Shown here: positions 18,783 to 55,416 of the stretch, in pieces | How the letters are laid out: the number at the start of each line of letters is the position of its first letter | Position numbering within the stretch: the stretch's first letter is position 1 | Source of the DNA: Methanobrevibacter sp. YE315 | GTDB lineage: Archaea > Methanobacteriota > Methanobacteria > Methanobacteriales > Methanobacteriaceae | DNA: 64,000 nt | Reading direction: 5' to 3' | Assembly: GCF_001548675.1 (NCBI RefSeq) | Contig: NZ_CP010834.1 | Coordinates: forward strand, 1,771,501-1,835,500 | Translations under genes and position numbers: made by a program | The notes under the pieces: model-generated | What the model was told of the DNA's origin: nothing | The model's input: only the letters and a program-made list of their open reading frames with translations | The model's database searches: none

Positions 18783-18888
18783 TTTAATACCTCCTTCTTA
18801 ACTAATTATGTAATTACATTTTATATGTACTTACATATAGTATGTTTTTATAAGTATATAAACATTATCATTGAATTAAAAATATGCC

Positions 18889-18933
18889 GTCCAACTCTCT
18901 TGGACATGTTGCGACGAACGAAGTGAGTCGCAA
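18889..18933. other. Pair of adjacent hairpins, GC-rich
   Basis: GTCCAA/TTGGAC (18889-18894 with 18900-18905) is followed by TTGCGAC/GTCGCAA (18909-18915 with 18927-18933). The loop GAACGAAGTGA resembles the loop of a hairpin near 52363 in the large hairpin array (GAGCGAAGCGA). Otherwise the gap 18783-19213 holds only repeat copy C and TACTTAC-like motifs near 18828. Confidence 0.5.
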
Positions 18934-19100
18934 TAGGTATATAGGGAGAAAATAAGTTGTAGTTTCGTTTATTTCTACATTAATATTAACAATTGCATCT
19001 CCGTTAATGAAATTATAATATTTTAAAAGTTGGTGGATTCTATGTTTCAGGTTAAATAATTTTAAAGTCCAATCAATAGCTATTAATTTAATGAACTCAC

Positions 19101-28779: not shown

Positions 28780-28843
28780 AATGAATAAATAATTTTTATT
28801 CATTTATTTTTATTTTTTCAGAGTTATATCTATTAATTCATCA

Positions 28844-30567: not shown

Positions 30568-30587
30568 CATAGTAATTATATACTATG
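30568..30587. promoter_or_regulatory. Palindromic operator candidate before the winged-helix gene
   Basis: CATAGTA (30568-30574) and TACTATG (30581-30587) form a perfect seven-base inverted repeat around ATTATA, overlapping the expected promoter 35-55 bases before the start at 30622. A good autoregulatory site for the encoded regulator. Confidence 0.5.
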
Positions 30588-30621
30588 AATTATATAATAA
30601 TGTATTATAAAAATATTAGAC

Positions 30622-30888
30622 ATGAAAAAAGAAATTATTGGAAAAGTCGCATATATTAAATCTTCAAAAAACAGATATAAAGTATTAGAAACATTATATG
30701 ATGATTTTAAACTTCCTTCTGAAATATCTAAAGAAACAGATATACGATTAAATCACGTCAGTGCTTTATTAAAAGATTTAAAAGAAAATGATTTTGTTTT
30801 ATGTCTAAATGAAGATGATGCAAAAGGTAGAATGTACGTTATAACTGAAACTGGAAAAGAAGTTATAAACATTTTACGTAAGGATTAG
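30622..30888 (+). CDS. Winged-helix regulator, possible restriction-modification controller
   Basis: 88 residues. The helix-turn-helix is about 30-55 (PSEISKETDIRLNHVSALLKDLKE), followed by a wing (GRMYVITETGKE), an ArsR/MarR-like layout. Its closest relatives in this window are the regulators at 35983 and 63704. It lies five bases before the first methyltransferase, in the position of a controller protein. No strong ribosome binding site, so probably leaderless from the palindromic promoter. Confidence 0.75.
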   Translation: MKKEIIGKVAYIKSSKNRYKVLETLYDDFKLPSEISKETDIRLNHVSALLKDLKENDFVLCLNEDDAKGRMYVITETGKEVINILRKD

Positions 30889-30893
30889 ATATA

Positions 30894-32033: not shown

Positions 32034-32037
32034 AATT

Positions 32038-33009
32038 ATGAAAACCGTTCAATCATCATTTGATTTAGAAAATAATTCTTTAAAAAAACCTAAAAATAAA
32101 TTAACTCCAATTGGAGATGTGAAATTCAAACAGAAGGATTTCTTAAAATGTCCTTTTAATTATATTGGTGGAAAACATAAAATACTTCCACAATTATTCA
32201 CAGCATTTCCTACAAACAATGATATTTTCCTAGACATGTTTGGAGGAGGATTTAATGTTGGAATAAATAGTGATGCTTCTAAAATCATCTACAATGATCA
32301 GCTAACTCCTTTAGTTGACTTATTTAAATATCTTCAAGACAATTCATGTGATGACATTATAAATTATATTGAAACTACAATTAAAGATAATAATATCAGA
32401 AAAGATGAAAAAGAGGGTTTCCTTAAATTTAGAGACAAATATAATCAATCTGAAGAAAAATTCCCTCTAGATTTATATGTATTAATTTCATTCTCATTTA
32501 ATTATCAGTTTAGATTCAATAATAGTGGAGAATACAATAATCCTCATGGAACTAATCGTAGCGCATTTACTAAAAACATGAAAGACAGATTAATACAGTA
32601 CATTAACGTAATTCATGAAAAAGACATCTGTTTTTTAAATAAAGATTTTACAAAACTAGATTATTCTATTTTAACAGAAAACAGTTTTGTTTATTGTGAT
32701 CCGCCTTATTTAATAACAACAGGTTCATACAATGACGGGAACAGAGGATTTAAAAACTGGACAATTAAAGAGGAAAAAAATTTATTAAAAGTATTGTCCC
32801 AACTGGACAATAATGGAATTAATTTTGCATTATCCAATGTTACAGTACACGATGGAAAACAAAATGAATTGTTATTAGATTGGATTGAAGTAAATGAGTT
32901 TACTGCATTAGATATCAATTCTGATTATAGTAATTCAAATTATCATAAAAAAAATAGAGAAAAAGAAAAAAATACAGAAGTATTAGTGATTAATTACCCT
33001 TTTGAATAG
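32038..33009 (+). CDS. DNA adenine methyltransferase, D12/Dam class (second of pair)
   Basis: 323 residues with GGGTGA before the ATG. FNYIGGKHKILPQL near 40-52, FLDMFGGGFNVG near 64-75 and VYCDPPYL near 219 give all D12 motifs. It transfers methyl to adenine N6. The end overlaps the end of the convergent endonuclease gene by 27 bases, a compact arrangement typical of type II systems. Confidence 0.88.
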   Translation: MKTVQSSFDLENNSLKKPKNKLTPIGDVKFKQKDFLKCPFNYIGGKHKILPQLFTAFPTNNDIFLDMFGGGFNVGINSDASKIIYNDQLTPLVDLFKYLQDNSCDDIINYIETTIKDNNIRKDEKEGFLKFRDKYNQSEEKFPLDLYVLISFSFNYQFRFNNSGEYNNPHGTNRSAFTKNMKDRLIQYINVIHEKDICFLNKDFTKLDYSILTENSFVYCDPPYLITTGSYNDGNRGFKNWTIKEEKNLLKVLSQLDNNGINFALSNVTVHDGKQNELLLDWIEVNEFTALDINSDYSNSNYHKKNREKEKNTEVLVINYPFE

Positions 33010-34386
33010 GTCGACTAACCATTTCGGAGCATTATCATTTAAAAGATAAGTTCCATTTTTATTTAAATGGAATAATACTTTTGGATTTAATCCATTTTGA
33101 TAAATGTTTTCTCCGAATGTGCTAACCCATCTAGTAATTGAATAGCTTGGATAATACTTCTTAATAAATTCATCTTCTATTGATTCAAAGTGTTTAATCT
33201 CTTCTAAACCTTGATTTAATGTGCCGGATTGTTTTCCTTCAATCAATAATATTTCTTTATTTTCATCATTCTTTAAAATTAAATCTGGTAAATAAAGATT
33301 AACTCCATTTTTATCTTTTTTAGGTAATGCAATAGCTTTTCTATCAGGTGTATAGAAGTATCCTCTTTCACAACCTGCATGATTCTCATATATTGCTTCA
33401 GTGCGAGGAGCGTCAGTAATTCCAATTAAATGGAGTAAGATTGTTCCATTCTTTTCGGAATTTCTTTCATAATGCCAATATTGTTTTAAGCTTACTTTAT
33501 TTTTACTTAAATTGATTCCTTCAAGTTGAAGGTCTAAAATTGATGCAATATTAAAGAATTTATTTGATCTTGCTCTATCAACATAATCCTGTTTAACTCC
33601 ATGATCAGTAATAATAATATCTTTATTCCAACCCAAACATCTCAATGTTTTACTAATAGCAGTTAATGCTCCAATATTTGGGTCATGCCCAATATTTCCA
33701 GCATCTGCTGGTTTTGACAATCGTCCAGATATTTTAATTGAATCATTTGTTTTAGTTATGAGAATTGGAACATTACCTTTTGGAGGGCGACGCATACCAT
33801 TTTTATAATTAATTAATTCGTCGATGCTATTGAATTTATTAAAATGTTTTAATGATTTACCTATAATTTCAACATTTTGTGTTAATAACATATTTGTTCC
33901 AAAAACACTTGTGTCAGAAGGTATTTTTTCATCATCACGTTCCGCAATATTGTATAACATGATTTTTGGAGTGTTAGGATAAAAATAATCTGCATAAACA
34001 AATTTACTCATTCTCTGATAAACTCCAGTATTCCTAGATTCTTTATCACTAGTTTTTGTTTCTTCTATAAGTAACTTCAAATTATTACCATCATTTTCAT
34101 TATTAACAGAACATTCTTTTGGTGCTGAAGATTGTTCAAAAACTAAAAAATCTACAAAGCTTGAATTACCTGAAGCTATTTTTAAGATAACTTTATCAAT
34201 ACCTCCAATTTCAACATTTTCAATTAAATATTCCTCATTAAAAACACTTCCAGAGTTAATATTTGGAATTATTTTTAATTGACCCTTTTTTAGTTGTTTA
34301 CCAAATTTATTAGAATAAATTTCTAGGATTCTGATTAATACATTTGGTTTTGCCCTTTCTTCTGTAAGTATGTACAAATTAGTCAT
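32983..34386 (-). CDS. Probable type II restriction endonuclease (PD-(D/E)XK)
   Basis: 467 residues from ATG 34386; the frame runs on to 34464 but that extension is hydrophobic and unlikely. PDLILKND then ILLIEGKQSG, about 365-387, is a PD-x(n)-E-x-K nuclease centre. The N-terminal 300 residues would recognise DNA. Partnered head-to-tail with two adenine methyltransferases, it is the expected cutter of that site, plausibly type IIS. Specificity cannot be read from sequence. Upstream lies an AT-rich divergent promoter shared with 34511. Confidence 0.72.
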   Translation of the reverse strand: MTNLYILTEERAKPNVLIRILEIYSNKFGKQLKKGQLKIIPNINSGSVFNEEYLIENVEIGGIDKVILKIASGNSSFVDFLVFEQSSAPKECSVNNENDGNNLKLLIEETKTSDKESRNTGVYQRMSKFVYADYFYPNTPKIMLYNIAERDDEKIPSDTSVFGTNMLLTQNVEIIGKSLKHFNKFNSIDELINYKNGMRRPPKGNVPILITKTNDSIKISGRLSKPADAGNIGHDPNIGALTAISKTLRCLGWNKDIIITDHGVKQDYVDRARSNKFFNIASILDLQLEGINLSKNKVSLKQYWHYERNSEKNGTILLHLIGITDAPRTEAIYENHAGCERGYFYTPDRKAIALPKKDKNGVNLYLPDLILKNDENKEILLIEGKQSGTLNQGLEEIKHFESIEDEFIKKYYPSYSITRWVSTFGENIYQNGLNPKVLFHLNKNGTYLLNDNAPKWLVDLFKRVINH

Positions 34387-34510
34387 ACTATTAATTCTTT
34401 TAAAAATAATCAAAATAATGATAAGACAATAATAATAAGCGATTAGTATGTTTTTAATATGCAATTAATAAGATTTAATAAATAAAACAGTAAAAATATA
34501 TGATTATAAG

Positions 34511-36257: not shown

Positions 36258-38267
<2,010 letters not shown>

Positions 38268-38268
<1 letters not shown>

Positions 38269-39404
38269 TATATCACTCCCGCACCGTAGAATCTAAAGTT
38301 TCTGTATGAATATTGGTCTGGCATGTTGAATACTATTGAAGGATAGCAGGTTCCTGAAGGAAAGCCATCCCTTGAACAGTTCCAGTCCCCATGCCTTACA
38401 AATTGTGTAGGATACTCCACCGTTGGATCATCCGTGTATTCATCAATAACACATGGATGGAATGCCCAAGAACAATCTACAATATATAATTTTTTATTTG
38501 GAGACTCAGGATTTCCATTGGTTTGTGTTGACATGTATGAAGTATTTTCAAAACACTGGACATAGCCTGCACTTCCACTTCCGTCTCCATACCAATACTT
38601 ACCTGCACCACCCAATCCAAAATTAGCCCATGAATCAATATTGAAGGCCATTCCAAGAGCGATGAATCTGGTTTTAGTATCATTACCTAAGTCAGACGCT
38701 ATCATAAAAAACTTATGGCCGTCTAATGAGGATTTAGTATAGCTTCCAAGCCCGGGCAATGTAATTCCAAAATAGTTTCCTGAATATCCGCTGTGAGCTT
38801 CCAGTATTATATCAACTTGTCCTGGCTCATCATCATCAAATTCCATTATGTCAAAACCAGAACTGGCCCCTACTCCATTAGCACTAAATAAGTTACTTCG
38901 TAGAGATGACGAGCTTAAATCAGAACTGTTAATTGCCGTTGTACAGTATACTCCATAGTCGCCTCCAGAAATGTTTCCGTTTCTGGCCTGAACATAGAAA
39001 TATCCTTTATCATTAGGCATTGGCACATTGACATTAACACTACCATTACTGCCTGTTGTTACTGTTCCTAAAGAAACGGGATTTGGATAAGTAAACTCAT
39101 CTGGATCAAGTCTATATACAGTAATAACTGCATTTGGCATAGGGTCTCCATGATTGTCTGTAGCTGAAACAGTAGCTGTTAAGCTATTGCCTGTTGAGAA
39201 TTTATCCACAAGGTTTACTTTAATGCTTGCCAATTGTGGAACCGGCAATTTCCTAATCAATGGAATTACACCGTCGCCTTCTGTATATCCAATTTCTTCT
39301 TTTGTTAGAATAGCTCTTAAATCGTTTCTGCATATTGTTAATCTTGAATTCATTGTCTGTTCATTAGTCATGACCTCAGAAAGGTCGGGAGGGGTGAAAG
39401 TCAT
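38268..39404 (-). CDS. Ig-like fibre/adhesin protein, paralogous layout
   Basis: 378 residues. N-terminal 1-55 (RLTICRNDLRAILTKEEI...VIPLIRKLP) matches the adaptor of the previous protein. Residues 58-155 form an Ig-like domain (NAVITVYRLD, GSVNVNVPMP). The unrelated C-terminal 220 residues are rich in Gly, Ser and aromatics with six Cys. A shared adaptor and Ig stalk with a different tip suggests tip exchange for host range. GGGAG precedes the ATG weakly. Confidence 0.65.
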
Positions 39405-39409
39405 GTTAA

Positions 39410-40390
39410 TCAGCTCCCGAGTAAATTCAAGTTTGAAGTTTGGGTGGATGTTATTGTTCCAATAGCAGTTTGGATATTTTCAATAGCTATGGCTACCGGT
39501 GCGTTTTTAATGGCATTGGTAGTGTCTGTTGTATCTAGTGAGCTTGCAAGATTAACAGGGCCAGTGTCCCCCGTGTCTCCTTTTTGACCACTAGCTCCAG
39601 TATCACCTTTAGCACCAGAGTCTCCGGTATCTCCTTTAACTCCTTGTGGTCCTGTATCACCAGTATCACCTTTCAATCCCGCAAGTTGCTGCGGTGTGAA
39701 ATCTTGATATGTGAATGCATCACCAGTATCACCTTTTGGCCCTGCAGGTCCAGTATCTCCGGTGTCTCCTTTTTGACCACTAGCTCCAGTATCACCTTTA
39801 GCACCGGATGCGCCTGTATCGCCAGTAGCTCCCTTAGGTCCTTTCAAATCAAAGTATTGGTCAACTAATGCTTTACCGTCACTTATACATGCAATGTGAC
39901 ATATATTATATTCACTCCTTGTTATAACCCAATCTCCAAGGTTTACTTCTGTTGCCCAAGGATTATCTGCCAATAAATCAGATACATAAAACCCACCATA
40001 CAATGTTGGTTGAGCTGGACACTCTGCTGAAGATAAGCTGCTATTTCTACCACTATGATACATGAATATTTGAGCGCCTGCTTTACCTGCTGGACCAGTT
40101 TCTCCAGTATCTCCGTGAATACCTGTAGCTCCGGACATGTCTGTTATGAATGTGAATTCAGAATTTCCTCTGAGATATAATTTAGCGTTATCGGGGTCTT
40201 CAACGTTAGATTGGATTGCAACAAAGCTTCCGTCTGGAACGTTAGCAAAGTCAGCTTCCATTAATGCTATTGTTGCGTATGTTTTAAAAATTGTGAATGG
40301 TGCTCCAGCAGGGCCAGTATCACCAGTAGCTCCTTGAGGCCCTGTTGCTCCCATTTCACCTCTTAAGTTTCCAACATCTCTCCAAGTCAT
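39410..40390 (-). CDS. Collagen-like fibre protein, in frame with the preceding gene
   Basis: 326 residues. It begins TWRDVGNLRG, the second half of the module LYVW...W-x-x-VGN-x-(R/K)G seen whole at 36258. Three Gly-X-Y blocks alternate with two small globular modules (25-80 and 105-180). The ATG lies one codon after the in-frame TAA of the upstream gene and has GGGAGGAATAAG as binding site. A longer fused product would result from read-through. Confidence 0.78.
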   Translation of the reverse strand: MTWRDVGNLRGEMGATGPQGATGDTGPAGAPFTIFKTYATIALMEADFANVPDGSFVAIQSNVEDPDNAKLYLRGNSEFTFITDMSGATGIHGDTGETGPAGKAGAQIFMYHSGRNSSLSSAECPAQPTLYGGFYVSDLLADNPWATEVNLGDWVITRSEYNICHIACISDGKALVDQYFDLKGPKGATGDTGASGAKGDTGASGQKGDTGDTGPAGPKGDTGDAFTYQDFTPQQLAGLKGDTGDTGPQGVKGDTGDSGAKGDTGASGQKGDTGDTGPVNLASSLDTTDTTNAIKNAPVAIAIENIQTAIGTITSTQTSNLNLLGS

Positions 40391-40393
40391 TTC

Positions 40394-41038
40394 TTATTCC
40401 TCCCATACATAAAGTTCACCATCAATTAAGTAAGCATCACCTACTTGAGGATTTGGAACATGCTCTTCCAATTCTTCAAGACTACTGTATGAGCCTTTGA
40501 TTATTGTTGATATTCCTGCAGGACCAGTGACTCCCGTATCGCCAGTGTCTCCTTTTTCTCCTTTAGCACCACTAGCTAATTTAAAACAATTAACATACTT
40601 GTATTCATCAGAATCGTCCACCGGATGTAATGCTAAATATTCACCGGAAGAATCTTTAACTGCTCCGTTTTCACCTAGTTTGATTTTATCTGCTGGTGAA
40701 ATATCTGTAACACCACTGGCTAGTTTGAGTCTGTATAGTTGGCCTAACACTAACACACTAGCTTTTCTTTGGCCATTATCCATTACTGTCGGATCATTAA
40801 CGATAATGCCTATCGGTATTTCATCATTATCGCCAGTGAATTTCTTGACCATTTCTTTTCCGATTTCTGATTTGTCTGAGATTGTAACAGTGTCTTCAGG
40901 ATATAATTTGTTTGTATAGTCATAGCCTATGCTTTGGCCTGTTTCTGTAACGACATCTTTTGATGTTACATCTCCATCATCGAGTAAAAATGTTGTGACT
41001 TCTTTTCTTTGTTCCAATAAAACTATTTGGTCTTGCAT
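40394..41038 (-). CDS. Decoration domain fused to collagen-like stalk
   Basis: 214 residues. The first 155 are homologous to the decoration protein at 23323. Then comes [19 protein letters not shown] and the first half of the fibre module (GDAYLIDGELYVWEE). So a capsid- or tail-binding base carries a collagen stalk that continues in the next gene. GAGGTGAG precedes the ATG, whose A is shared with the upstream stop. Confidence 0.78.
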   Translation of the reverse strand: MQDQIVLLEQRKEVTTFLLDDGDVTSKDVVTETGQSIGYDYTNKLYPEDTVTISDKSEIGKEMVKKFTGDNDEIPIGIIVNDPTVMDNGQRKASVLVLGQLYRLKLASGVTDISPADKIKLGENGAVKDSSGEYLALHPVDDSDEYKYVNCFKLASGAKGEKGDTGDTGVTGPAGISTIIKGSYSSLEELEEHVPNPQVGDAYLIDGELYVWEE

Positions 41039-44546: not shown

Positions 44547-44725
44547 GATTAATATTTTATTATCCTTTTTATATAAATTATATAATAAAAAAAGTAATAT
44601 TGACATTAATGATAGTTATTTGAGATTTGAAAATTATTTTGGGAAATGTTATATACATATGATTTATACAAATTATATTATAATCACATTTATCTTAGCA
44701 GTAATTTTTAAAAAAGGTGAGAAAG

Positions 44726-45922
44726 ATGGTTGATTACTTTTGTCCACGTTGTGAAAACACAGATGTAAAAGTTATTGGGCCTCAATTAATATTTTGTCCA
44801 GATTGTGATTTAGAATTATTTGTATTTAATTTTAATACCATTGTAGAAGATGTAAATAGATTAAATGAAATTAATAGAAATTTAGCAATTGGTTCTGGTT
44901 TAGATTTGGATTTAATTAATGAAAAGATTGGCATTTTAGTTAATTTATATAGATATAAAGAAGCAACAGAGATGTGTGAAAATTTATTTGTTTTAGAAGC
45001 TCCTTCTATTATTCCAAACCACATTGATAATATTCTCATAAATGAAGATGTTCCTGACGATATTGTATGTAGATTAGAAATTTTAAAAGCTAAAACTTTA
45101 TTGTTTTTAAACACCGGCATTCATAAGCGCAATTTAGACAATGAAGATGAATTATTTGAAGCTGCACAATTATATATACAATCCCCCAACTTTGAAGAAG
45201 ATGCCCTTAGATGTTGTGATTTGCTGTTAAAAAGGGATGGAAATAAAACAGACTATTTAAATGTGATGGCGGAATTATACTTTAGAACATATGATTATGA
45301 ACTTGCATTAAACTATTATAATCAATCAGGCATAATGAAATATGATGATTTTTGGTTATGGTTTAACAAAACTAGAGTCTATTTAATTCTTAAAAATTAT
45401 GATAAAGCATTAGAATGTGGCGCCATAGCAATTAATACACAAAATGTTGATCATAAATATCTTCCAGAATTGTTTAACATGTTAGGATTGGAATTTGATC
45501 TTGACAACATTTCTTATTTAAACGAGCATTATAAAAAATATTCAATTTCTATTTCTGAAATGGACTCTCTATGTGATGATGCTGAAACTCTATTAGCTAA
45601 TAATAACTTGCAAGGAGCACTAGCTAAATATGATAAATGTATATTGCTTTTTGACTGCTTTTCTGATGTTTGGTTTAATAAAGGATTGATCCATTATCAT
45701 CTGCAACAATATGAACAAGCAATATCCTGTATGGAAAAAACAATTGGAATAAATGAACGTGCTTCTAAAGCTTGGGCATTAAAAGCCGCATCACTACTTG
45801 CAATTGAGAAATATCGTGATTCTAAATATTGTGCTAAAAAAGCATTAAACTATGATAAAAATGATTTAACTGCTAAAGGAGTATTAGAATTTTTTAAATC
45901 TAATCCATTAGCTGCATTATAA
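44726..45922 (+). CDS. Zinc-ribbon plus TPR protein (operon gene 1)
   Basis: 398 residues from ATG 44726 after AAGGTGA. Residues 6-29 are a ribbon (CPRCEN...FCPDCD). The rest is helical repeat with TPR units, clear at 170-260 and 300-375 (ALAKYDKCILLFDCF, AISCMEKTIGINERA). It heads a four-gene operon ending at 50954, all of whose products carry zinc ribbons. TPR plus ribbon suggests an adaptor that gathers partners, perhaps the helicase-nuclease of gene 3. Confidence 0.75.
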   Translation: MVDYFCPRCENTDVKVIGPQLIFCPDCDLELFVFNFNTIVEDVNRLNEINRNLAIGSGLDLDLINEKIGILVNLYRYKEATEMCENLFVLEAPSIIPNHIDNILINEDVPDDIVCRLEILKAKTLLFLNTGIHKRNLDNEDELFEAAQLYIQSPNFEEDALRCCDLLLKRDGNKTDYLNVMAELYFRTYDYELALNYYNQSGIMKYDDFWLWFNKTRVYLILKNYDKALECGAIAINTQNVDHKYLPELFNMLGLEFDLDNISYLNEHYKKYSISISEMDSLCDDAETLLANNNLQGALAKYDKCILLFDCFSDVWFNKGLIHYHLQQYEQAISCMEKTIGINERASKAWALKAASLLAIEKYRDSKYCAKKALNYDKNDLTAKGVLEFFKSNPLAAL

Positions 45923-45978
45923 TTAAAAAAGTATAAATACGGAATGATAAATTTTTATATTTAATAAACGTGATAAAT

Positions 45979-46248
45979 ATGGAAATTGAAAAGATATTAT
46001 GGATTCCTGATGAATGTCCTGCATGCGGGGTTAAACTTCAAAAAGGTTCAACTAAATGTCCAAATTGCAATTATGATTTATTCAATGAATTAAATAAAAG
46101 ATGTCCAAAATGTGGAAAAAGAATTCCTTTGGGATCTAAATTTTGTATAAGATGTGGAAATGATTTAAAAAAAAGTAAATGCAATAAATGCGGTTATGAA
46201 AATGAAAAAACTTCAAAATTCTGTATTAAATGCGGTAATGTATTATAG
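45979..46248 (+). CDS. Small triple zinc-ribbon protein (operon gene 2)
   Basis: 89 residues from ATG 45979. Five CxxC pairs and one C-x2-C-like end give about three ribbons: CPACG/CPNCN, CPKCG/CIRCG and CNKCG/CIKCG. No other domain. Ribbons of this kind bind zinc and mediate protein or nucleic acid contact. Nine bases before the helicase start. Confidence 0.72.
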   Translation: MEIEKILWIPDECPACGVKLQKGSTKCPNCNYDLFNELNKRCPKCGKRIPLGSKFCIRCGNDLKKSKCNKCGYENEKTSKFCIKCGNVL

Positions 46249-46257
46249 GGTGATTCA

Positions 46258-49200
46258 ATGGTGAAATTAAGTCCAAAACAAGAAAAAATTGTATACTATG
46301 ATGGTCCTAATCCATTAAGTGTTGAAGCAGGACCCGGTGCTGGAAAAACTAGAGTAATTATTGAAAGAGTAAAATATCTTTTAAATGAGAAAAAAGTTGC
46401 TCCTGAAAGTATGCTAGTAATCACTTTTACAAGAAAAGCAGCTGATGAACTTAAAGATAGGCTGTCAAAAGATGATATTGCAAAAAGTGACATTGATTTA
46501 ATGCAAATTTCAACCATCCACGGATTCTGTTCAAGAATCCTACAAGAAAGTGGAGCTATTGGTTTTGATGTTATTGATGATGATTTAAATGAGAAAAATA
46601 ACATGTTTATTTCAAAGCACCTGAAAGATTTAGGTTTTGTTGATGAATTTACTGTTAAACCACGTGATGTTAGAGATATTGTTAGAAAATATAATGAATA
46701 CACAACTTTTAAAGTTGATACAAGATGTTTAACTGAATACATTAAAGAAACTAGGCCAATGAGTGTTGAGTATCTTACTTTTGTAAAAAATTATATGGAA
46801 GAGAACGATGGAAAATTTCCATTTAATGAAATACATGATGATAAGGAGCTTAAAAAATCATATTATAATGCAAAATATTTAAAAATAGCTGAATCTTATC
46901 CTAAATATCTACAACTTCTTGAAGAAGAGAATTTGACTGATTTTTCTTTAATGCAAGTAAATACATTGAAACATTTAGAGTTAAATCCAAAAACTCAATT
47001 TACAAATGTTTTAATTGACGAGTTCCAGGATACTGACCCTGTACAGATGAAAATATTTGCCACATTAATGGAGAATGCAGATTCATTTATGGTAGTGGGA
47101 GATGTTGAACAAAGTATTTATGGATTTAGAGGTTCAATTGAAAACTACTTTAAGAAATTATATGACGATCACGGAGATAATGTTGAGAAAATGGATTTAT
47201 CAACCAATTATCGTTCAACTAATGAGATTATTGATTTTTCAGAAAAATATATTTACGACCAAAAGATTAAGCATTCCAGTAAAAGTGATGCTGATGGTGC
47301 GAGAAATGTTTCAAGAGATATTTACTATATGATAAGTGATGATAACAACTCAGAAGCAGAACAACTTGTTAGCTTAATTTTAAATTTAAAAAACACTAAT
47401 AAAATTGATGATTATTCTGAAATTGGAATTTTAGCCAGATCAGTTACAAGTGAAAATAACTGTATTAATCCATTAATTGAAAAACTTAAGGAAAATAATA
47501 TCCCATATCAAGTTAAAGGTAGAAGTGATTTACTTGAAAGAGATGAGATTAAATCAATATTAACTTTATTATATTACATTATCCAAGATGATGATGAACA
47601 TAGTCCTATTTTTAATGGTTGGGAACTTGATTGGTTAAATCTAAAAGCATTTACTGGTGAAAACTTCAATCAAACATTAGTTAACCTTTCCGATGAAACA
47701 AAAGACATTTTAAACTCTGTCCATGATAATTTTGAAGCAGAAGTTATTGCTACAGAAAAAGAAGTTTATTTAGAAATGACTGGTAAAAAAAGCAGAGTTT
47801 CTAAGTTTACAGGAGTACTAAATAGAGATGATGATATTAAAGCGGAAATATTTAGACGTGTTTCAAGACCTATGATAAATCATCAAAATCTCTTAAAATG
47901 GGGAGTTACAAATACTGATGATTTAACATTCTTTTATCTTTTGGAAAATATTAAAAATGACTACCTGAATGAAGATATTCCATGGGAAGAGAAACCAAGT
48001 ATTTTAAATTTATATCTGCAACTTCTAACAATTACTGATTATTTGGATGAAGAATTTATTAATGCTGATGAAAATAAACATCAAGTTGAAAATATTGCTC
48101 TTTTAAGCAATACATTATTTAATTATGAACAAGTTAGAAATCCTAAAGATTTAGCAGGTGCATTCTGGTTCTTATATCATAATATTGATGAATATGGTGC
48201 ATATGCTGAAGGTGAAGGGGTTCAAATAATGACAGTTCATAAATCTAAAGGTTTAGAATTCCCAGTCGTCATTGTCGCATCTTTAAGTGAGGGCAAGTTT
48301 CCAATGAAGTTTAAAGATCCTAATCCTCCAAGTGGTTATGCATTTATTGGTGGTAAAATAAGACCGGTTTATTATTCCCCGAATCCTTGTCTTGAATATA
48401 AACCATTTGGGAAAACATTAGATGAGAATGGTGTTTTAATTGATGAAAAGACACATGAACAAATGGCTCATGATGAAGAAGAAGAACGTATTGTTTATGT
48501 TGCAATAACAAGAGCAAAAGACACTTTAATCTTATCAAACATTTCTCCTGAGGGATCTGAGGATTTATTCGATAAAGCATTTAAATATCTTGATTCTAAT
48601 TTAGATATTAAAACTAAAAAACAATACTTTGACTTAGTTCCAAAGGGTAATGAAAAAATACAACATTTCATTGACTCCAATGATTATTGTAAACCGTTAA
48701 GAAATAATTTTGAAATCATTGAACCTACCGTGTGTGAAAAAGATGAAGTTGAAGAAGAACCCGTGCAATTAAGTTTCACATCTTTAATGAATTATCAAAC
48801 ATGTCCTTTAAAATATAGGCTTGCAAATGATTTTGGTCTTAAAACAACTGACACTCGCCGTATGAGTGATGGTATATTCATACATAAAGCATTTGAAGTA
48901 ATTAACAAACTCATTAAAGAAAATGACAATGTTTATATTGGTGATGAAAAGGTAATATCAACTGTAACTAATTTATTTAACAAATCTAAATTAGAAGAAA
49001 CTCCTAATGAAAATGATTCTCAGAAATTAGCTAGAATCACAGAAGATATTCTATATTACTACCACAACGAAGGAAAAGATTTAGAAATCATTGATTGTGA
49101 AGTTCCATTTTACATTAAAAAAGATAATTATAGTTTAAATGGAGTAATTGATTTAATATATAAAACCAAGGATGGAAAAATTGGAATTTTAGATTACAAA

Positions 49201-49608
49201 AACACTAAATCTGCTAACAAGTATCTTGAAAAGTATACCAAACAATTATATACCTATATTTTAGGGTTAAGTGATGAAAATCATAGATATGCTGGTTTAG
49301 ATATTGGGGAATTAAAAATTTATGCAATTAAATCCAAAGAAGCGAAACCTATTCCAATCAATCAAATTGAAATAGACGAACTTGCACAAGACATTAAAAC
49401 CACCGCTCAAAATATTGGAGATTGTAATTTTTCATCAGCAAAAGATAAACATTGTGATCAATGTCAATATGCCATGATTTGTAAAGGGAAAAAACCAGAT
49501 ATAAAATTACCTCCTAAACAAGAAAGTGGAGCCAAGTTTTGTTTTAATTGTGGAAATAAATTAGAGGCAGGTATGAAATTCTGTCCAGAGTGTGGTCAAA
49601 AATTATGA
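46258..49608 (+). CDS. UvrD-type helicase fused to RecB/AddB-type nuclease and zinc ribbon (operon gene 3)
   Basis: 1116 residues with GGGTGATT before the ATG. SF1A helicase: Walker A GPGAGKT near 25-31, TRKAADELK, LIDEFQDTDPVQ near 253, QSIYGFRGS, MTVHKSKGLEF near 660 and VAITRAKDTL near 745. The C-terminal nuclease starts SFTSLMNYQTCPLKYRL near 840, has GVIDLI...ILDYKN near 962-980 and CDQCQYAMIC near 1066, so four Cys could hold an Fe-S cluster as in AddB and Cas4. It ends in a Cys4 ribbon (CFNCG/CPECG). A single-chain DNA-end processing machine. Confidence 0.88.
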   Translation: MVKLSPKQEKIVYYDGPNPLSVEAGPGAGKTRVIIERVKYLLNEKKVAPESMLVITFTRKAADELKDRLSKDDIAKSDIDLMQISTIHGFCSRILQESGAIGFDVIDDDLNEKNNMFISKHLKDLGFVDEFTVKPRDVRDIVRKYNEYTTFKVDTRCLTEYIKETRPMSVEYLTFVKNYMEENDGKFPFNEIHDDKELKKSYYNAKYLKIAESYPKYLQLLEEENLTDFSLMQVNTLKHLELNPKTQFTNVLIDEFQDTDPVQMKIFATLMENADSFMVVGDVEQSIYGFRGSIENYFKKLYDDHGDNVEKMDLSTNYRSTNEIIDFSEKYIYDQKIKHSSKSDADGARNVSRDIYYMISDDNNSEAEQLVSLILNLKNTNKIDDYSEIGILARSVTSENNCINPLIEKLKENNIPYQVKGRSDLLERDEIKSILTLLYYIIQDDDEHSPIFNGWELDWLNLKAFTGENFNQTLVNLSDETKDILNSVHDNFEAEVIATEKEVYLEMTGKKSRVSKFTGVLNRDDDIKAEIFRRVSRPMINHQNLLKWGVTNTDDLTFFYLLENIKNDYLNEDIPWEEKPSILNLYLQLLTITDYLDEEFINADENKHQVENIALLSNTLFNYEQVRNPKDLAGAFWFLYHNIDEYGAYAEGEGVQIMTVHKSKGLEFPVVIVASLSEGKFPMKFKDPNPPSGYAFIGGKIRPVYYSPNPCLEYKPFGKTLDENGVLIDEKTHEQMAHDEEEERIVYVAITRAKDTLILSNISPEGSEDLFDKAFKYLDSNLDIKTKKQYFDLVPKGNEKIQHFIDSNDYCKPLRNNFEIIEPTVCEKDEVEEEPVQLSFTSLMNYQTCPLKYRLANDFGLKTTDTRRMSDGIFIHKAFEVINKLIKENDNVYIGDEKVISTVTNLFNKSKLEETPNENDSQKLARITEDILYYYHNEGKDLEIIDCEVPFYIKKDNYSLNGVIDLIYKTKDGKIGILDYKNTKSANKYLEKYTKQLYTYILGLSDENHRYAGLDIGELKIYAIKSKEAKPIPINQIEIDELAQDIKTTAQNIGDCNFSSAKDKHCDQCQYAMICKGKKPDIKLPPKQESGAKFCFNCGNKLEAGMKFCPECGQKL

Positions 49609-50954
49609 AATTCTGTTGGAGTTGCGGAGCAGAATTAAGGGGAACAAATCCCCAATTCTGCAGCGAATGTGGAATAAAATTAGATGATGGAAAACAAACA
49701 CCAACACCAACACGGACTGTTGGAGGAACAGGCAATGTTAATGTAACTATTACTAATAGTTTCCGAGAAGCTCAGAGATTATACCAAATTAATGAATATG
49801 AACTTGCATTAACATACATTGATGATGCAATTGAAGAAGATCCGGAAAACTACAATTATTATAATTTAAAGGCATTAATCTTAAAACAGTTGCATCGCTT
49901 TGATGAACATGCAAAAATGGTTGATAAATCATTAAAAATAAAAGAAAATCTTGAAGCAAGATACATGATTGCATTTGGATTGGCTATGGGTGAAGATAAA
50001 CTTGCTATTGAATTATATAGGGATGCTGAAAGCAATTATAATGGTAATGCCGAATATTATGCTAAATTGGCAAGCTTATATTACATAACCTCTGATTATA
50101 ATCAGGCGATTAAAGCAGCTGATAAATCATTGAGTATTGATTCTAATAATGGACTCGGACATTTTTATAAAGGTTGTGCAAATGCTGCTAAAGAAAATTT
50201 TAAAATATCAAATGAATCATTTGAACAAGCATTAAAATACTTAGACATATCAAGTGAAGAATATCCAGCAATTTACTTTTTTAGAACATATAACTTCATC
50301 GGAATGATGAATGAATTTTTGGAAAGAAATAATCAAAATATACTACCAATGCTTTCGCAAGCAGTAAAAGACTCACAAGAAGGATATAAAATATTTTCAG
50401 CACATTATAACAAGAATAAAGAATTCGTTTTCCTTAATTTTAGCCTTGATTTGATTCCATTAGTGTTAAATTACTTAGTTCAAAACAATTACTTCTTTGT
50501 AGATTTCCATACTGGATTTGGAATAAAAGTAGCACATAGTTTACAAGACATAACAGATGAATATGTAAAACTTAGAAGTCAAAACACAATTGTTTTAAAA
50601 ATGAAAGGTGACATTTACGGAAGATTAGGTTTTCATGATAAAGCAGTTGAATGCTTTGATGCAGTCCTAAAAACAAAAGATCCAGATTTCAGAGTATTAG
50701 GTTACAAAGGTCGTTCATTACTTGAACTAGGACGCATACAAGAAGCTGAAAATTGTTTAAAACAAATGTATATATTTTTAGAAGATGAAATTTCACGTGA
50801 CCCTAGAAATATCTATTTAATTCGTGAAAAGGCAGTAACATTGGCTCAATTGGGTAGAAAAAGAGACGCCTTAAAATGTTATGACGAAATCTTAAGAATT
50901 GATCCAACAGCCCCATTTGTGGAACAGGATAAAATAAATATTATGCGCCTTTAA
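49605..50954 (+). CDS. Zinc-ribbon plus TPR protein (operon gene 4)
   Basis: 449 residues. Its ATG overlaps the stop of the helicase gene (ATGA), so translation is coupled. A ribbon at 3-24 (CWSCGAEL...FCSECG) is followed by a Thr-rich linker and about ten TPR units (YELALTYIDDAIEEDPEN to ALKCYDEILRIDPTAP). Same plan as gene 1 of the operon, not close in sequence. Probably a scaffold or regulator of the helicase-nuclease. Confidence 0.78.
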   Translation: MKFCWSCGAELRGTNPQFCSECGIKLDDGKQTPTPTRTVGGTGNVNVTITNSFREAQRLYQINEYELALTYIDDAIEEDPENYNYYNLKALILKQLHRFDEHAKMVDKSLKIKENLEARYMIAFGLAMGEDKLAIELYRDAESNYNGNAEYYAKLASLYYITSDYNQAIKAADKSLSIDSNNGLGHFYKGCANAAKENFKISNESFEQALKYLDISSEEYPAIYFFRTYNFIGMMNEFLERNNQNILPMLSQAVKDSQEGYKIFSAHYNKNKEFVFLNFSLDLIPLVLNYLVQNNYFFVDFHTGFGIKVAHSLQDITDEYVKLRSQNTIVLKMKGDIYGRLGFHDKAVECFDAVLKTKDPDFRVLGYKGRSLLELGRIQEAENCLKQMYIFLEDEISRDPRNIYLIREKAVTLAQLGRKRDALKCYDEILRIDPTAPFVEQDKINIMRL

Positions 50955-51023
50955 TTATTTAATAGTAAATAATAATAGTTTAAATTGTCTGAATGTATTG
51001 TATCATCCAGAACTTAATCATTC

Positions 51024-51998
51024 CTAATAGCAATCACTCGCATAATAACTATCAACTGCACGTTCTACTAATTCCATTAAATAATATTTCACAGTTTCAT
51101 ACTCGTTTTGACCAATATAGTAAAAATTACCTGCTTCAAAAAAACCATCATCAATTATTCCTCGTCTTTTTAATTTGTCAGCAATATCAGATAATTCAAA
51201 ATTACCTAAATCAATGAAATAACTATTGCCAATTTTAATTTGATTATATCTACTTTCATCACCCATCATATCAATTTCAATTATTAATTTTTCTTGTGGA
51301 TTATCCCTTCCAAATAAATCAAATGCATTATAATCATAATGCATAACTACACCAAAAGCATAAGCCTTACCCTCTTTTAATACATATATTTGAGTATCAG
51401 GATCCAAATTATTAATTATTGTTTTAAATTCACCCACAGTAAAATCATATTTTCTTGACAAAGGCCTTGGAATTGATATTTCATTTGGAGTATTTGATTC
51501 ATTCCTAAAAGTGAGAGGTATTGAGCTACTTCTAAAGTTAGATCTTGAATTTCCTCTATTAAAATTATTTTCTTGATTAATTGATAAAAATATTTTTTTA
51601 GAATCATGAGACTTAAAAATATTTGTAACTTTATATTCCTTCCTATTTTGCTGAATATAAATTACAGAATTTGGATTAAAATTAAATTTAGTTAAATCTA
51701 AATGATTATACCCTTGGAAACTATCTATTATTGCAGGAGTGTTAGTATCATATTGTAAAATTTCAAAACCAAACTTTTTTTCAATAGCATTAACTTTATT
51801 ATAAAAATATTCATAATCTTCATTTGAAGATTGTTGACCTAATTCATACATTTCTTCAATATCATTAATTTCAAATCCTAATTGTAAACAAGTAATAAAA
51901 AGACTGCCCTTTTTTTCTAAAGTACTTAAAATAATATTCATAGGATTAATATAAACTTCACCTTCATTTATCACTCTTTCTTTGTCATTTAAAAACAT
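51024..51998 (-). CDS. Hypothetical cargo protein
   Basis: 324 residues with AGGTGAG upstream. Residues 1-90 are acidic and helical; 100-180 form a Ser/Asn-rich linker (NRGNSRSNFRSSS). The C-terminal 140 residues are an alpha/beta domain with FTVGEFKTIINNLDPDTQIYV and FGVVMHYDYN. No family recognised. It converges on the four-gene operon and may belong to the same cargo unit. Confidence 0.5.
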   Translation of the reverse strand: MFLNDKERVINEGEVYINPMNIILSTLEKKGSLFITCLQLGFEINDIEEMYELGQQSSNEDYEYFYNKVNAIEKKFGFEILQYDTNTPAIIDSFQGYNHLDLTKFNFNPNSVIYIQQNRKEYKVTNIFKSHDSKKIFLSINQENNFNRGNSRSNFRSSSIPLTFRNESNTPNEISIPRPLSRKYDFTVGEFKTIINNLDPDTQIYVLKEGKAYAFGVVMHYDYNAFDLFGRDNPQEKLIIEIDMMGDESRYNQIKIGNSYFIDLGNFELSDIADKLKRRGIIDDGFFEAGNFYYIGQNEYETVKYYLMELVERAVDSYYASDCY

Positions 51999-52161
51999 TG
52001 AAATCCCTTCTCACCTATGTTTATTGATTTGTAATTAAAACCAACATATTTATTAACAATATATTTACATTTTATTATTCTCAGATAATAAAAATTTCTA
52101 TGAAAATTGGCAAAATAATTAATTATTTGGATTAATTCAAACAGACATGCCCACGTTTTAA

Positions 52162-52243
52162 GCGAGCCAATTCGCCCAGGCCGACCCCACGCCGACCGAA
52201 GGGAGGCGTGTGTGGGAGGCCTGGGTGAATAGGATTGGCGAGC
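52162..52243. repeat. Large branched hairpin, first of the hairpin array
   Basis: GCCAAT (52166) pairs with ATTGGC (52234); CGCCCAGGCC (52173) with GGCCTGGGTG (52218, one G-T pair); CCCAC and GCC inside with GTGGG and GGC. It opens a GC-rich locus in AT-rich DNA. Confidence 0.75.
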
Positions 52244-52257
52244 ATATACTGTATGGA

Positions 52258-52283
52258 GGAACCGACCCTCGCCGGTCGGTTCC
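52258..52283. repeat. Hairpin type I, copy 1
   Basis: GGAACCGACC / GGTCGGTTCC, ten perfect pairs, loop CTCGCC. Same stem as 52557-52581 with a different loop. Confidence 0.85.
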
Positions 52284-52340
52284 GTAAGGCAAACAATGTA
52301 AAAACCATTTTTAAAATAATCAAGATTTTCATTATGTTCC

Positions 52341-52359
52341 GTCCGACCGAAGGTCGGAC
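52341..52359. repeat. Hairpin GTCCGACC-GAA-GGTCGGAC
   Basis: Eight perfect pairs, tri-loop. A weaker stem GCCTT/AAGGC over GAGCGAAGCGA follows at about 52364-52385. Confidence 0.8.
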
Positions 52360-52427
52360 TGGACGCCTTGAGCGAAGCGAAAGGCCAATACTATAGACCT
52401 AACAATAATAGCCATGTCAGGTTCCGA

Positions 52428-52452
52428 GGAACAGGGGCTTGTCCCCTGTTCC
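52428..52452. repeat. Hairpin type II (loop CTTGT), copy 1
   Basis: GGAACAGGGG / CCCCTGTTCC, ten perfect pairs. Flanked by TCCGA and by CGAGTTTATGGATTT, which recur at copy 2. Confidence 0.88.
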
Positions 52453-52491
52453 GAGTTTATGGATTTGAAAATATTAGTTTGTCGACTCCGA

Positions 52492-52516
52492 GGAATGGGG
52501 GCTTGTCCCCCATTCC
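52492..52516. repeat. Hairpin type II (loop CTTGT), copy 2
   Basis: GGAATGGGGG / CCCCCATTCC, ten perfect pairs. Relative to copy 1 two adjacent pairs have changed on both sides of the stem. Confidence 0.88.
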
Positions 52517-52556
52517 GAGTTCATGGATTTGGCATAGATGAATTTATCAAATTTAA

Positions 52557-52581
52557 GAACCGACCCTTTAGCGGTCGGTTC
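52557..52581. repeat. Hairpin type I, copy 2
   Basis: GAACCGACC / GGTCGGTTC, nine perfect pairs, loop CTTTAGC. Confidence 0.85.
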
Positions 52582-52632
52582 GTGGGTTAAGTTTTGTTAA
52601 CATCATTCGTCCTTGCATTGGCATTCGTGGGT

Positions 52633-52662
52633 AATTAAAGGGGGGCTTGTCCCCCCTTAATT
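52633..52662. repeat. Hairpin type II (loop CTTGT), copy 3
   Basis: AATTAA-A-GGGGGG / CCCCCC-TTAATT with one bulged A; same CTTGT loop as copies 1 and 2, new outer stem. Confidence 0.85.
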
Positions 52663-52690
52663 AGGCATTAAGGGTTTCAATGCAAGATTT

Positions 52691-52730
52691 TTAAGGGAGA
52701 GTGAAAACACACAAAACACTTCCCCCTTAA
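52691..52730. repeat. Last hairpin of the array
   Basis: TTAAGGG (52691) pairs with CCCTTAA (52724) and AGTG (52700) with CACT (52717), over an AC-rich loop. The remainder of 51999-52794 shows no gene. Confidence 0.65.
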
Positions 52731-52794
52731 TTATATAACGAGCGATTCAATGAAAGTATAGCTCCGGTGAAAAAGTAAGAAAACACCATCATAG

Positions 52795-53763
52795 CTATAT
52801 TCTAGTTCGGTTGAATCCCATATCCTTTAGAATTTTATTATATTCCTCACGTGTCGTGAAGGAAGGCGCATCCTCATCTCCAGTGCTGCCCGTAAATCCA
52901 GTTTCTTCTACATCACCAGAGTTTTCAGGATTTCTTCCTCCAGGAGTTGAACCATCATTACTAGCTTCAATTTTAATTCTTCTTTCAGCCAGTTTTTCCA
53001 TTAATTCCATATCAACATCACCAGATAATAGCTTATCAATTATCTCTTTATCCTGAGCGTTTTCATTATAATTAAAGTTATATTTAGTTTCGTACTCTTT
53101 TATTTTCCTTTCATTTTCAGCTTTTCTTAATTCAGATAATTCTTTTAGAATATCATCTTTAGAATCTATAAATTCCTTATTTTCTTCAATAGCTTTTTTA
53201 ATCTCATCATACTTCTTAGATTCTTCTTTCAAATTATTAATTTCATCCTGAAGCTTTCCAATCTCAGCATCCTTACCTTGCAGCTTTTCCAATAATAAAG
53301 TTGTAGCTACATTTGTATCTTTAGTAGGTGTTTGAGGTTGTGGCTGTGGAGCAGGCGGTTCAGGATTAGGATTTCCAGTTGCACTTCCATCACCAGCAAT
53401 ATCTGAATTTAACAAGGTAATTTTTCTTGGACTTTTAGTTACACCAACATCTATTAAGCTCATAGTATCAATTCCAAATGAATCTCCTTTATCTTTTAAT
53501 AAGACATCAACTTTAGGAGATAGACCTTTTCCTTCCATATCCAATTCGTCCGGAACTTCAATGAATAGCTTACCTTCTTCATATTCAATATTATTTCCAA
53601 TACCAACGTAGATATTGTCATGCTCTGAAGTTAGTGGAATTCCTCCACGGTAGTTTTCAGCTATTAGCTTAAGATCATCTTCAGTCCATTCAACAGGTTT
53701 GTCGAGTCTATCGTCCAGGTCGGAATAGTCATAGGATCCGACTTCAAAAAGTTCATGCCTCAT
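52795..53763 (-). CDS. Prohead protease/scaffold-like protein
   Basis: 322 residues from ATG 53763. The N-terminal 125 residues (VEWTEDDLKLIAENYRGGIPLTSEH...SFGIDTMSLIDVGVTKSPRKITLL) resemble the protease or protease-derived domain of Mu-like and tailed-virus prohead proteins. A Pro/Gln linker and a long coiled coil (155-260) typical of internal scaffolds follow. The gene is just downstream of the portal gene. I see a possible Ser/His pair but cannot confirm catalytic residues, so it may be scaffold only. Confidence 0.6.
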   Translation of the reverse strand: MRHELFEVGSYDYSDLDDRLDKPVEWTEDDLKLIAENYRGGIPLTSEHDNIYVGIGNNIEYEEGKLFIEVPDELDMEGKGLSPKVDVLLKDKGDSFGIDTMSLIDVGVTKSPRKITLLNSDIAGDGSATGNPNPEPPAPQPQPQTPTKDTNVATTLLLEKLQGKDAEIGKLQDEINNLKEESKKYDEIKKAIEENKEFIDSKDDILKELSELRKAENERKIKEYETKYNFNYNENAQDKEIIDKLLSGDVDMELMEKLAERRIKIEASNDGSTPGGRNPENSGDVEETGFTGSTGDEDAPSFTTREEYNKILKDMGFNRTRI

Positions 53764-53827
53764 TATTATCACATTTTTATTATATTATTTATTATATATT
53801 TTATTACTTATTTTATATAAATCTTTA

Positions 53828-55138
53828 TTATACTTCAACACCACTTTCAGTTACAATCCTTTCACCAACAGGCTGTTCCTCTTCAAAGTTACTTAGATAG
53901 TTCTTATAAATCTCATCACCTTCAGAAGACAGTTCCATAATGTATCTTAAAACATCATCTCTTGAATAGCTGAAATAAATATCTAAAGTTTCACTAATAC
54001 CCATTAACTCCAATTGCATATTCAATAGCTGATTGCAATACTTTAACACCCATTTCTGGTCGTTGGCCACATTAACAATAAACCCAGTGATAGCTGAATC
54101 GTTAATGTACTCGGCCACATTCTGATTAGACTTTTCATTACCTGCCTGAGACTGAGGAGTTACAAAAGTTCTTAAAATATTATTTCTAAAGATTTCAGTT
54201 TGCCTCGTATAGTCAGATTGGTAGTTGTTACCCCCTAAGATTTTAGATTCTATTCCAGGAGGCACAATAGCTACATTACTCCCAGCAGTAGTTCCATAAT
54301 CAGCATAAAGATTTTCCTTAGCAGTGGATGAAAGTTCAGTAATATAAGGCTGGCCATTCGCATCCATTGCAGGCTTAACTTCAATAATATTATCCTTATT
54401 AATTCTCTCTACTTGGTTTCTCTCCAAATTACATTTGTGATATATATCATCAAGGCAATTTAGGATAATACTTTGAGCTTCACAATAAATCTCATTATAC
54501 ATGAAGTTAATAACCTCTTCAGGTTCGTACTTGACCGTTAATGTTCCTTCTTCAACACTAACATAATTAGCGAACTCTTCAGGAGATCCCGCAACAACAT
54601 CTTCGGGCATCTTATGTAGATATAACTGTACTTCATTATCATCATTAAATTCTTTCTTTAATCCATAACCTTTAGCACCGATTTCCAAAAATATAGGTTT
54701 AATATATTTACCTATAGATTTATCCCAACGTTGCACAGGTTTAATTAGACCTTCCCCATCAACCATTCCACCTTGCAGAATATTTTTAGCAATTTGGCTG
54801 ATGTCAATTTTTCTTGCCCATAAGATTAAAGTTAATTTCTGCTCTTGAGATAACTTATTTTCCTTATCCACAAGAACCATATTAACATTAGCTTTATCAA
54901 TCCTATTTTTCAAAATTCCTGAAGTATAACCGTCAAGCTTTACAGCATAACGTGCATTAGCTATTGTCTTATTAATTACAGGTGGAAGTGCATCAGGCAA
55001 GTCAAGACCAGTATTTATCCCATCAGTTTTAGGCTGCCTTTCATCCTCCCCCCAATAGCTACGTTTTGTATTGTACTGCTCTACACGATTATTCAATAGT
55101 CTAGTTTTAATATAATCAGTAATTCCCATAATAATCAT
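53828..55138 (-). CDS. Portal protein
   Basis: 436 residues. The pattern of an alpha-helical wing, PPVINKTIANARYAVKLDGY, a GEGLIKPVQRWD strand region, a central helix ILNCLDDIYHKCN and VPPGIESKILGG...TRQTEIFRNNILRTFVTPQSQ is characteristic of SPP1/phi29-like portal proteins. It forms the dodecameric DNA entry ring. A TTTTATATAAAAAA box about 32 bases upstream suggests a leaderless transcript. Rightmost gene of the element. Confidence 0.78.
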   Translation of the reverse strand: MIIMGITDYIKTRLLNNRVEQYNTKRSYWGEDERQPKTDGINTGLDLPDALPPVINKTIANARYAVKLDGYTSGILKNRIDKANVNMVLVDKENKLSQEQKLTLILWARKIDISQIAKNILQGGMVDGEGLIKPVQRWDKSIGKYIKPIFLEIGAKGYGLKKEFNDDNEVQLYLHKMPEDVVAGSPEEFANYVSVEEGTLTVKYEPEEVINFMYNEIYCEAQSIILNCLDDIYHKCNLERNQVERINKDNIIEVKPAMDANGQPYITELSSTAKENLYADYGTTAGSNVAIVPPGIESKILGGNNYQSDYTRQTEIFRNNILRTFVTPQSQAGNEKSNQNVAEYINDSAITGFIVNVANDQKWVLKYCNQLLNMQLELMGISETLDIYFSYSRDDVLRYIMELSSEGDEIYKNYLSNFEEEQPVGERIVTESGVEV

Positions 55139-55348
55139 TCATATTTTTTATTATATTATTTATTATATTTTTTATATAAAATAAGTAATAAATTATTTGG
55201 TACATTATTTTAAAATAAATATTTTCGATTGGTAACTATACAAAACCAGTTCATTCGTTTTCATACGAACAATTGTAACATTTATTTGCCAAAAAGTTCA
55301 GATTATTAGTTGTAAAAATACAGCGAGAAAAGTAGTAACTATACAAAA

Positions 55349-55369
55349 ATTTATATACTTACAAAAAGT
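55349..55369 (+). repeat. Candidate right attachment repeat (attR)
   Basis: TTTATATACTTACAAAAAGT(A) matches 3949-3969 at 19 of 21 positions and is followed by TACTTACTG (near 55380) like that before the integrase. It overlaps the likely TATA box of the Hsp20-like gene, so integration would lie in that promoter. Confidence 0.35.
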
Positions 55370-55416
55370 AAATAAAACATACTTACTGATATTCATCAAG
55401 TAGGAGTGTGAAAAAT

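What the first reader, a model, noticed from the sequence alone, without database searches (positions are those of the whole stretch)
52162..52730. GC-rich hairpin array with compensatory base changes
Eight or more hairpins lie in 570 bases of otherwise gene-free DNA. Type II stems share loop CTTGT three times. Between copies 1 and 2 the stem changes C-G and A-T (52432-52448, 52433-52447) to T-A and G-C (52496-52512, 52497-52511) on both strands, so pairing is being kept. Type I stem occurs twice with different loops. The locus sits between cargo and the portal/scaffold genes. It could be a packaging or recombination site, an RNA cluster, or mobile palindromes of the REP or MITE type.
Basis: seen in the sequence. 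Interest (0 to 1): 0.74.

Follow-up and report, generated by a model that had tools for sequence, protein, structure and literature searches.

The report
Structured RNA element in methanogen viruses
The hairpin cluster is a conserved element of about 620 bases, most likely one large folded non-coding RNA, that sits beside the prohead-protease gene in integrated viruses of gut Methanobrevibacter and matches no RNA family in Rfam.

Summary
The hairpins belong to one element, about 52146-52797. It recurs in about 30 genomes of the genus, two genomes of sister genera, and the archaeal virus vir323. In 42 loci its 3' hairpin abuts or overlaps the stop codon of the prohead protease, and it points towards that gene. 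Upstream lies a variable cargo slot.

Three modules show compensatory changes that beat all 500 shuffles and every slid register. Full-length copies fold 23-91 kcal/mol below shuffles; two relics that have lost the virus genes fold only about 10 below. A recurring arm (tandem G-A pairs, two base pairs, short loop) occurs about 80 times on the plus strand of the copies and never on the minus strand. A diverged copy of one module stands alone at 18877-18945.

Rfam has no match. The CTTGT hairpin occurs nowhere else in the 2.27-Mb genome, so REP/MITE palindromes are rejected.

Best reading: a large structured non-coding RNA on the plus strand, comparable in kind to GOLLD and ROOL but unrelated. 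Weak points: transcription is undemonstrated, no fixed promoter was found, G-U versus A-C counts do not resolve the strand, and several viruses keep only a shortened element.

The parts
52146..52797 (+). whole conserved element (putative structured non-coding RNA)
   Evidence: nucleotide conservation from 52146 in 30+ genomes and vir323; folding
52162..52243 (+). M1: long 5' arm with three tandem G-A steps, 3'-side bulges AAUAG and UGU, and a short tip loop
   Evidence: covariation 89.9% paired, 21 two-sided cells, 0/500 shuffles; model R2
52329..52399 (+). M2: two hairpins, 52341-52359 and 52365-52385 (GA-GC-GAA-GC-GA cap), followed by the AATACTATAG motif
   Evidence: covariation 87.6% paired, 16 two-sided cells, 0/500 shuffles; model R1
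52428..52452 (+). M3a: CTTGT hairpin copy 1
52492..52516 (+). M3b: CTTGT hairpin copy 2, two compensatory pair changes relative to M3a
52557..52581 (+). M4: GAACCGACC/GGTCGGTTC hairpin (type I stem, copy 2), kept in most reduced elements
52614..52684 (+). M5: compound stem TGCATTG/CAATGCA enclosing the third CTTGT hairpin (52632-52663)
   Evidence: covariation 95.4% paired, 10 two-sided cells, 0/500 shuffles
52691..52730 (+). M6: hairpin GGGAGAGTG/CACTTCCCC
   Evidence: not tested by covariation
52740..52797 (+). M7: 3' hairpins GAGC/GCTC and GGTG/CACC, overlapping the stop codon of the protease gene; the most widely retained module
   Evidence: alignment A4; 92.5% paired but covariation not significant
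18877..18945 (+). solitary diverged relative of M2 (stems changed, G-A steps and GAA loop kept), same strand as the element
   Evidence: model R1 hit, 19.8 bits, E 7e-4
52795..53772 (-). adjacent convergent gene, prohead protease by similarity to vir323
   Evidence: 92% identical to the vir323 gene annotated prohead protease, DBA35514.1; no Pfam or PHROGs match
53828..55138 (-). portal protein gene by similarity to vir323
   Evidence: 93% identical to the vir323 portal
51024..51998 (-). nearest gene of the variable cargo slot upstream of the element
   Evidence: ORF; slot content differs between copies

Best explanation
The element is the gene of a large structured non-coding RNA of head-tailed proviruses of Methanobrevibacter, read from the plus strand, towards and convergent with the prohead protease gene. 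It folds into a chain of arms: a long 5' arm (M1), the double-hairpin M2, several CTTGT-loop hairpins, M4, the compound stem M5 and a 3' hairpin pair. Many arms end in the same small motif: tandem G-A pairs, two base pairs, short loop. Shown: conservation, fixed position, compensatory changes, decay in two relics, one-sided occurrence of the G-A motif. Inferred: that it is transcribed, that the plus strand is the RNA, and its role. I think it most likely that it works late in infection as a structural RNA, binding proteins or itself through its repeated arms, as GOLLD and ROOL are thought to do in bacterial phages. The variable number of arms (one or two M2, one to three CTTGT hairpins) fits a scaffold with repeated binding modules better than a catalyst or a riboswitch.
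For: Homologues in about 30 genomes of the genus, two sister genera and vir323. Two-sided changes on M1, M2 and M5: 0/500 shuffles reach the observed covariation scores; slid registers reach at most 0.011 against 0.090 (M2), 0.058 against 0.134 (M1) and 0.026 against 0.072 (M5). Thirty-one of 33 copies with both ends recognised fold 23-91 kcal/mol below dinucleotide shuffles, whereas the two relics without virus genes (L078, L097) fold only 12 and 9 below. The G-A arm occurs 79 times on plus and 0 on minus strands of the copies, 0.3 expected, and outside the elements only AT-rich chance matches occur in 655 kb. Its two inner pairs vary as CC/GG, CU/AG, GC/GC, AU/AU and AC/GU with the G-A steps kept. 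Several tetraloops are GNRA on the plus strand. Shuffle-corrected energy favours plus by 4.4 kcal/mol, 23 of 33 copies. R1 recovers a strongly diverged M2 at 18877. M2 and its replacement M2' never occur in the same copy.
Against: No transcript data. No TATA-like site at a constant distance upstream, although upstream DNA is swapped between copies. G-U and A-C wobbles are about equal in simple hairpins (28 to 33), so those hairpins do not tell strands apart. Related provirus loci keep only a 190-250 nt version (L061, L067, L068, L085, L087, L098, L100), one has a degraded remnant (L200) and one lacks it (L199), so the full form is dispensable. Perfect palindromes can gain paired changes by template switching. 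The sequences are related, so shuffle counts overstate independence. M7 covariation is not significant.
Confidence: 0.62

Rival explanations
1. The structure acts on the minus strand as the 3' untranslated or intercistronic region of the late operon: it stabilises or ends the protease mRNA and separates head genes from the cargo slot.
For: The 3' module M7 starts at the protease stop codon and is the part kept in almost all shortened elements. Minus-strand folding is nearly as stable. A conserved A-C position in one helix would be G-U on the minus strand. No plus-strand promoter was found.
Against: The G-A/short-loop arm is plus-strand only. A terminator would not need 600 conserved nucleotides with internal loops. 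The shuffle-corrected energy favours plus.
Confidence: 0.17
2. A DNA-level site: a recombination hotspot or packaging/replication site whose palindromes act as cruciforms, explaining the cargo slot at its 5' edge.
For: Sharp 5' boundary with unrelated upstream DNA and variable cargo; partial copies ending abruptly within the element in non-viral contexts; equal G-U and A-C counts; module duplication.
Against: Unpaired internal loops and G-A steps are as conserved as the stems. The arm motif is strand-asymmetric. M2 also occurs alone at 18877. The site is 2.5 kb from the provirus end and far from the terminase genes.
Confidence: 0.15
3. Mobile palindromes of REP or MITE type accumulated at one place.
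For: Hairpins occur in variable copy number.
Against: GGGGCTTGTCCCC occurs six times in the genome with at most one mismatch, all inside the two elements. M2 is absent elsewhere in the genome at E up to 1. The element is nearly always at the same gene.
Confidence: 0.03
4. Chance hairpins or an assembly artefact.
For: None found.
Against: Recurrence in independent assemblies and a virus record; energies; covariation.
Confidence: 0.01

Closest known systems
ROOL RNA (rumen-originating, ornate, large)
   Same: Large multi-hairpin RNA of prophages and phages, unknown function (PMC12286853); similar length (ROOL's size from my own knowledge).
   Different: Bacterial; often near tRNA islands; conserved multi-pseudoknot fold. 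No Rfam match here, archaeal host, protease-adjacent position, repeated arms in variable number.
GOLLD RNA
   Same: [quoted passage not shown] Here too the 3' module is the most widely kept.
   Different: Over 800 nt in many members, bacterial, near tRNA islands; no sequence or model match here; expression untested.
OLE RNA
   Same: Large ornate RNA.
   Different: A bacterial RNA class (PMC12286853); no Rfam match here; this element is in proviruses of an archaeon.
REP/MITE palindromes
   Same: GC-rich hairpins in multiple copies in an intergenic region.
   Different: Not dispersed in the genome; fixed order, fixed position, one composite structure.

Membership tests
GOLLD, ROOL, OLE or any other Rfam 15 family | Match to the family covariance model at the gathering score | tested here: not met
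   No gathering hit in the window. Best sub-threshold hits in the element are chance level, e.g. GA-cis 16.1 of 34.7 bits; none in eight further loci.
Large phage-encoded structured ncRNA (as a kind) | Hundreds of nucleotides of conserved, covarying secondary structure without a conserved reading frame | tested here: met
   Reading frames of 70-140 codons occur in varying frames; their conservation was not tested formally.
Large phage-encoded structured ncRNA (as a kind) | Encoded in viruses or proviruses at a recurrent place | tested here: met
   42 loci next to the prohead protease, including vir323.
Large phage-encoded structured ncRNA (as a kind) | Transcribed as RNA | not testable with these tools
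   No expression data; promoter scan inconclusive.
GOLLD/ROOL-like | Location near tRNA islands | tested here: not met
   No tRNA in the 64-kb window.
REP/MITE | Many dispersed copies in the host genome | tested here: not met

The most novel reading that the evidence does not exclude
A previously undescribed family of large structured RNAs in archaeal head-tailed viruses, built from repeated arms capped by a tandem G-A/short-loop motif, forming a virus RNA scaffold or RNA-only assembly: an archaeal counterpart of the phage RNAs GOLLD and ROOL.
Probability: 0.4. Interest if true: 0.82.

Novelty: new variant of a known kind. Interest (0 to 1): 0.62.

Why it matters
Large structured RNAs of unknown function are known from bacterial phages, and two of them form RNA cages. 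My literature searches returned no report of one from an archaeal virus, in an open-access library only. A family with many natural variants, reduced forms and solitary modules in gut methanogens would let one ask which parts are needed, and whether such RNAs arose independently in viruses of two domains.

Tried and rejected
Rfam at gathering and relaxed thresholds: nothing. tRNA search: nothing. Plasmid collection: no match. Two DNA-pattern scans of viral contigs with element patterns found nothing and two found only the one 34-kb contig L022, whose element sequence agrees with vir323; a scan with an M2' pattern found nothing. Strand test by G-U versus A-C: inconclusive. RNAalifold on a rough alignment: similar on both strands. 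TATA-box search: no fixed position. CRISPR-spacer idea for the G008 hit and several 26-44 nt hits in sister genera: short AT-rich matches or remnants, not pursued as evidence. Hits in MAGs labelled Acholeplasmatales and Bacilli: judged mis-binned methanogen provirus contigs. Pairing between the 5' GTTAT and 3' ATAAC ends: considered by eye, not consistent across copies.

Full report
Observation. Nine or ten stem-loops lie between 52162 and 52797. The plus strand folds at -250 kcal/mol against -185 (sd 8) for shuffles and the minus strand at -242 against -177.

Relatives. A DNA search of relatives found a second copy in the same genome (G000:C1:432143-432732, 90% identical) and copies in other genomes of the genus. 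A search of 138 genomes of the family found matches in 40; setting aside short AT-rich hits this is about 30 genomes of the genus, one of g15 and one of g18. Covariance models of two modules gave the same distribution in 150 genomes of the order. The phage collection holds it in vir323 (BK063679.1), a circular head-tailed virus assigned to Methanobacteriales. An exact-pattern scan of GTDB contigs named the carriers: mainly Methanobrevibacter MAGs from rumen and gut. Two contigs filed under Acholeplasmatales and Bacilli appear mis-binned: one is 99.7% identical to a Methanobrevibacter locus over its whole length and the other carries the provirus protease and portal.

Context. In 42 loci the element's 3' end abuts or overlaps the stop codon of the same protein (76-93% identical to the window gene; prohead protease by the vir323 annotation), followed in most by the portal gene where the contig reaches that far, with the plus strand of the element pointing towards these genes. 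A protein search found one clearly related protease locus without the element (L199) and one with a degraded remnant (L200). Upstream lies a slot with differing content: helicase-nuclease plus TPR protein here, elsewhere large adhesin-like proteins, an ArsR-like protein, a MATE-like protein or a PIN-like protein (these labels beyond the window are read by eye from sequence). Seven short elements of 190-250 nt keep M7, and most of them M4 and an alternative module M2'. Copies away from virus genes exist (L078, L097, L089, L082, L101, L099). L078 and L097 retain a few dozen bases of protease tail and look like relics.

Structure. Three alignments were tested with a named structure. M2 (25 sequences): 87.6% of cells paired, 16 two-sided cells against 6.3 shuffled, covariation score 0.090 against at most 0.011 for slid registers. 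M1 (21 sequences): 89.9%, 21 cells against 7.0, 0.134 against at most 0.058. M5, with the third CTTGT hairpin (22 sequences): 95.4%, 10 cells against 3.6, 0.072 against at most 0.026. No shuffle of 500 reached the covariation score in any of the three. M7 was not significant. These counts do not correct for relatedness.

The arm motif. Arms in M1, M2 and M2' end in GA-NN-loop-NN-GA where NN/NN pair. The pairs include CC/GG, GC/GC, CU/AG, AU/AU and AC/GU while the G-A steps stay; loops include GAA, GUAA, GCAA, GAAA and GUGA. The motif was found 79 times (22 unique) on the plus strand of 54 copies, never on the minus strand, with 0.3 expected in shuffled sequence. In 655 kb of context the matches outside elements are AT-rich chance matches. 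In the first hairpin of M2 the G-A step alternates with Watson-Crick pairs, even between the two copies of this genome. The R1 model also finds 18877-18945, where both stems differ but the G-A step and GAA loop remain (19.8 bits, E 7e-4).

Selection on folding. Of 33 copies with both ends recognised, 31 fold 23-91 kcal/mol below dinucleotide shuffles, while the relics L078 and L097 fold only 12 and 9 below. The relics are sister copies, so this is one or two independent cases.

Strand. For plus: the arm motif, GNRA loops, and a shuffle-corrected energy difference of 4.4 kcal/mol (23 of 33 copies; Wilcoxon p 7e-4 on related sequences). Undecided: G-U 28 against A-C 33 in simple hairpins. Against or silent: no constant TATA-like box upstream, and the 3' module sits on the protease stop codon, which also suits a minus-strand 3' region.

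Known families. Rfam release 15 has no match. GOLLD and ROOL are large phage RNAs, often near tRNA islands, and form RNA-only cages (PMC12286853). Here there is no tRNA in the window, the host is an archaeon, and the arm number varies. I therefore place it beside them as a kind, not as a member. REP or MITE palindromes are rejected.

Verdict. A real, conserved, structured element, very probably functional at the RNA level. The function as a late structural or scaffold RNA is an inference by analogy. Transcription must be shown first.

Noticed in passing
window 18877-18945 (+): Solitary diverged copy of module M2 between two minus-strand virus genes; vir323 has a homing endonuclease gene in roughly the corresponding interval (20764-21702).
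   Followed up: partly
window 44717-51998: Cargo slot upstream of the RNA: a UvrD-like helicase with a PD-(D/E)XK nuclease domain (46258-49608), TPR proteins and zinc-ribbon proteins; slot content differs between relatives.
   Followed up: partly
window 24036-34464: Apparent restriction-modification cargo (type III-like pair 24036-28779, two adenine methyltransferase-like genes, further nuclease-like gene), judged by eye from the translations.
   Followed up: no
window 36258-41038: Tail-region proteins with collagen-like GDTGPAG repeats.
   Followed up: no
window 21432-23311: Two tandem paralogous genes matching the arrangement of the two HK97-like major head protein genes in vir323.
   Followed up: no
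window 4178-5356 and 53828-55408: Integrase near the left end and portal at the right end next to a small heat-shock-like gene: the provirus is permuted, with its right end just outside the portal gene.
   Followed up: no
L213 and L220: Contigs in MAGs labelled Acholeplasmatales and Bacilli that carry this methanogen provirus: probable mis-binning.
   Followed up: yes
L207:1516-1580 (-), L208:1456-1520 (+): Two further weak M2-model matches (23 bits) outside full elements, with a GAGCG-AA-GCG core.
   Followed up: partly
L078, L097, L089: Three relics share the same upstream gene (a cysteine-rich C_GCxxG_C_C-like protein, by eye) plus the RNA element without virus genes: cargo and RNA kept together after the virus was lost, or moved as a unit.
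   Followed up: partly
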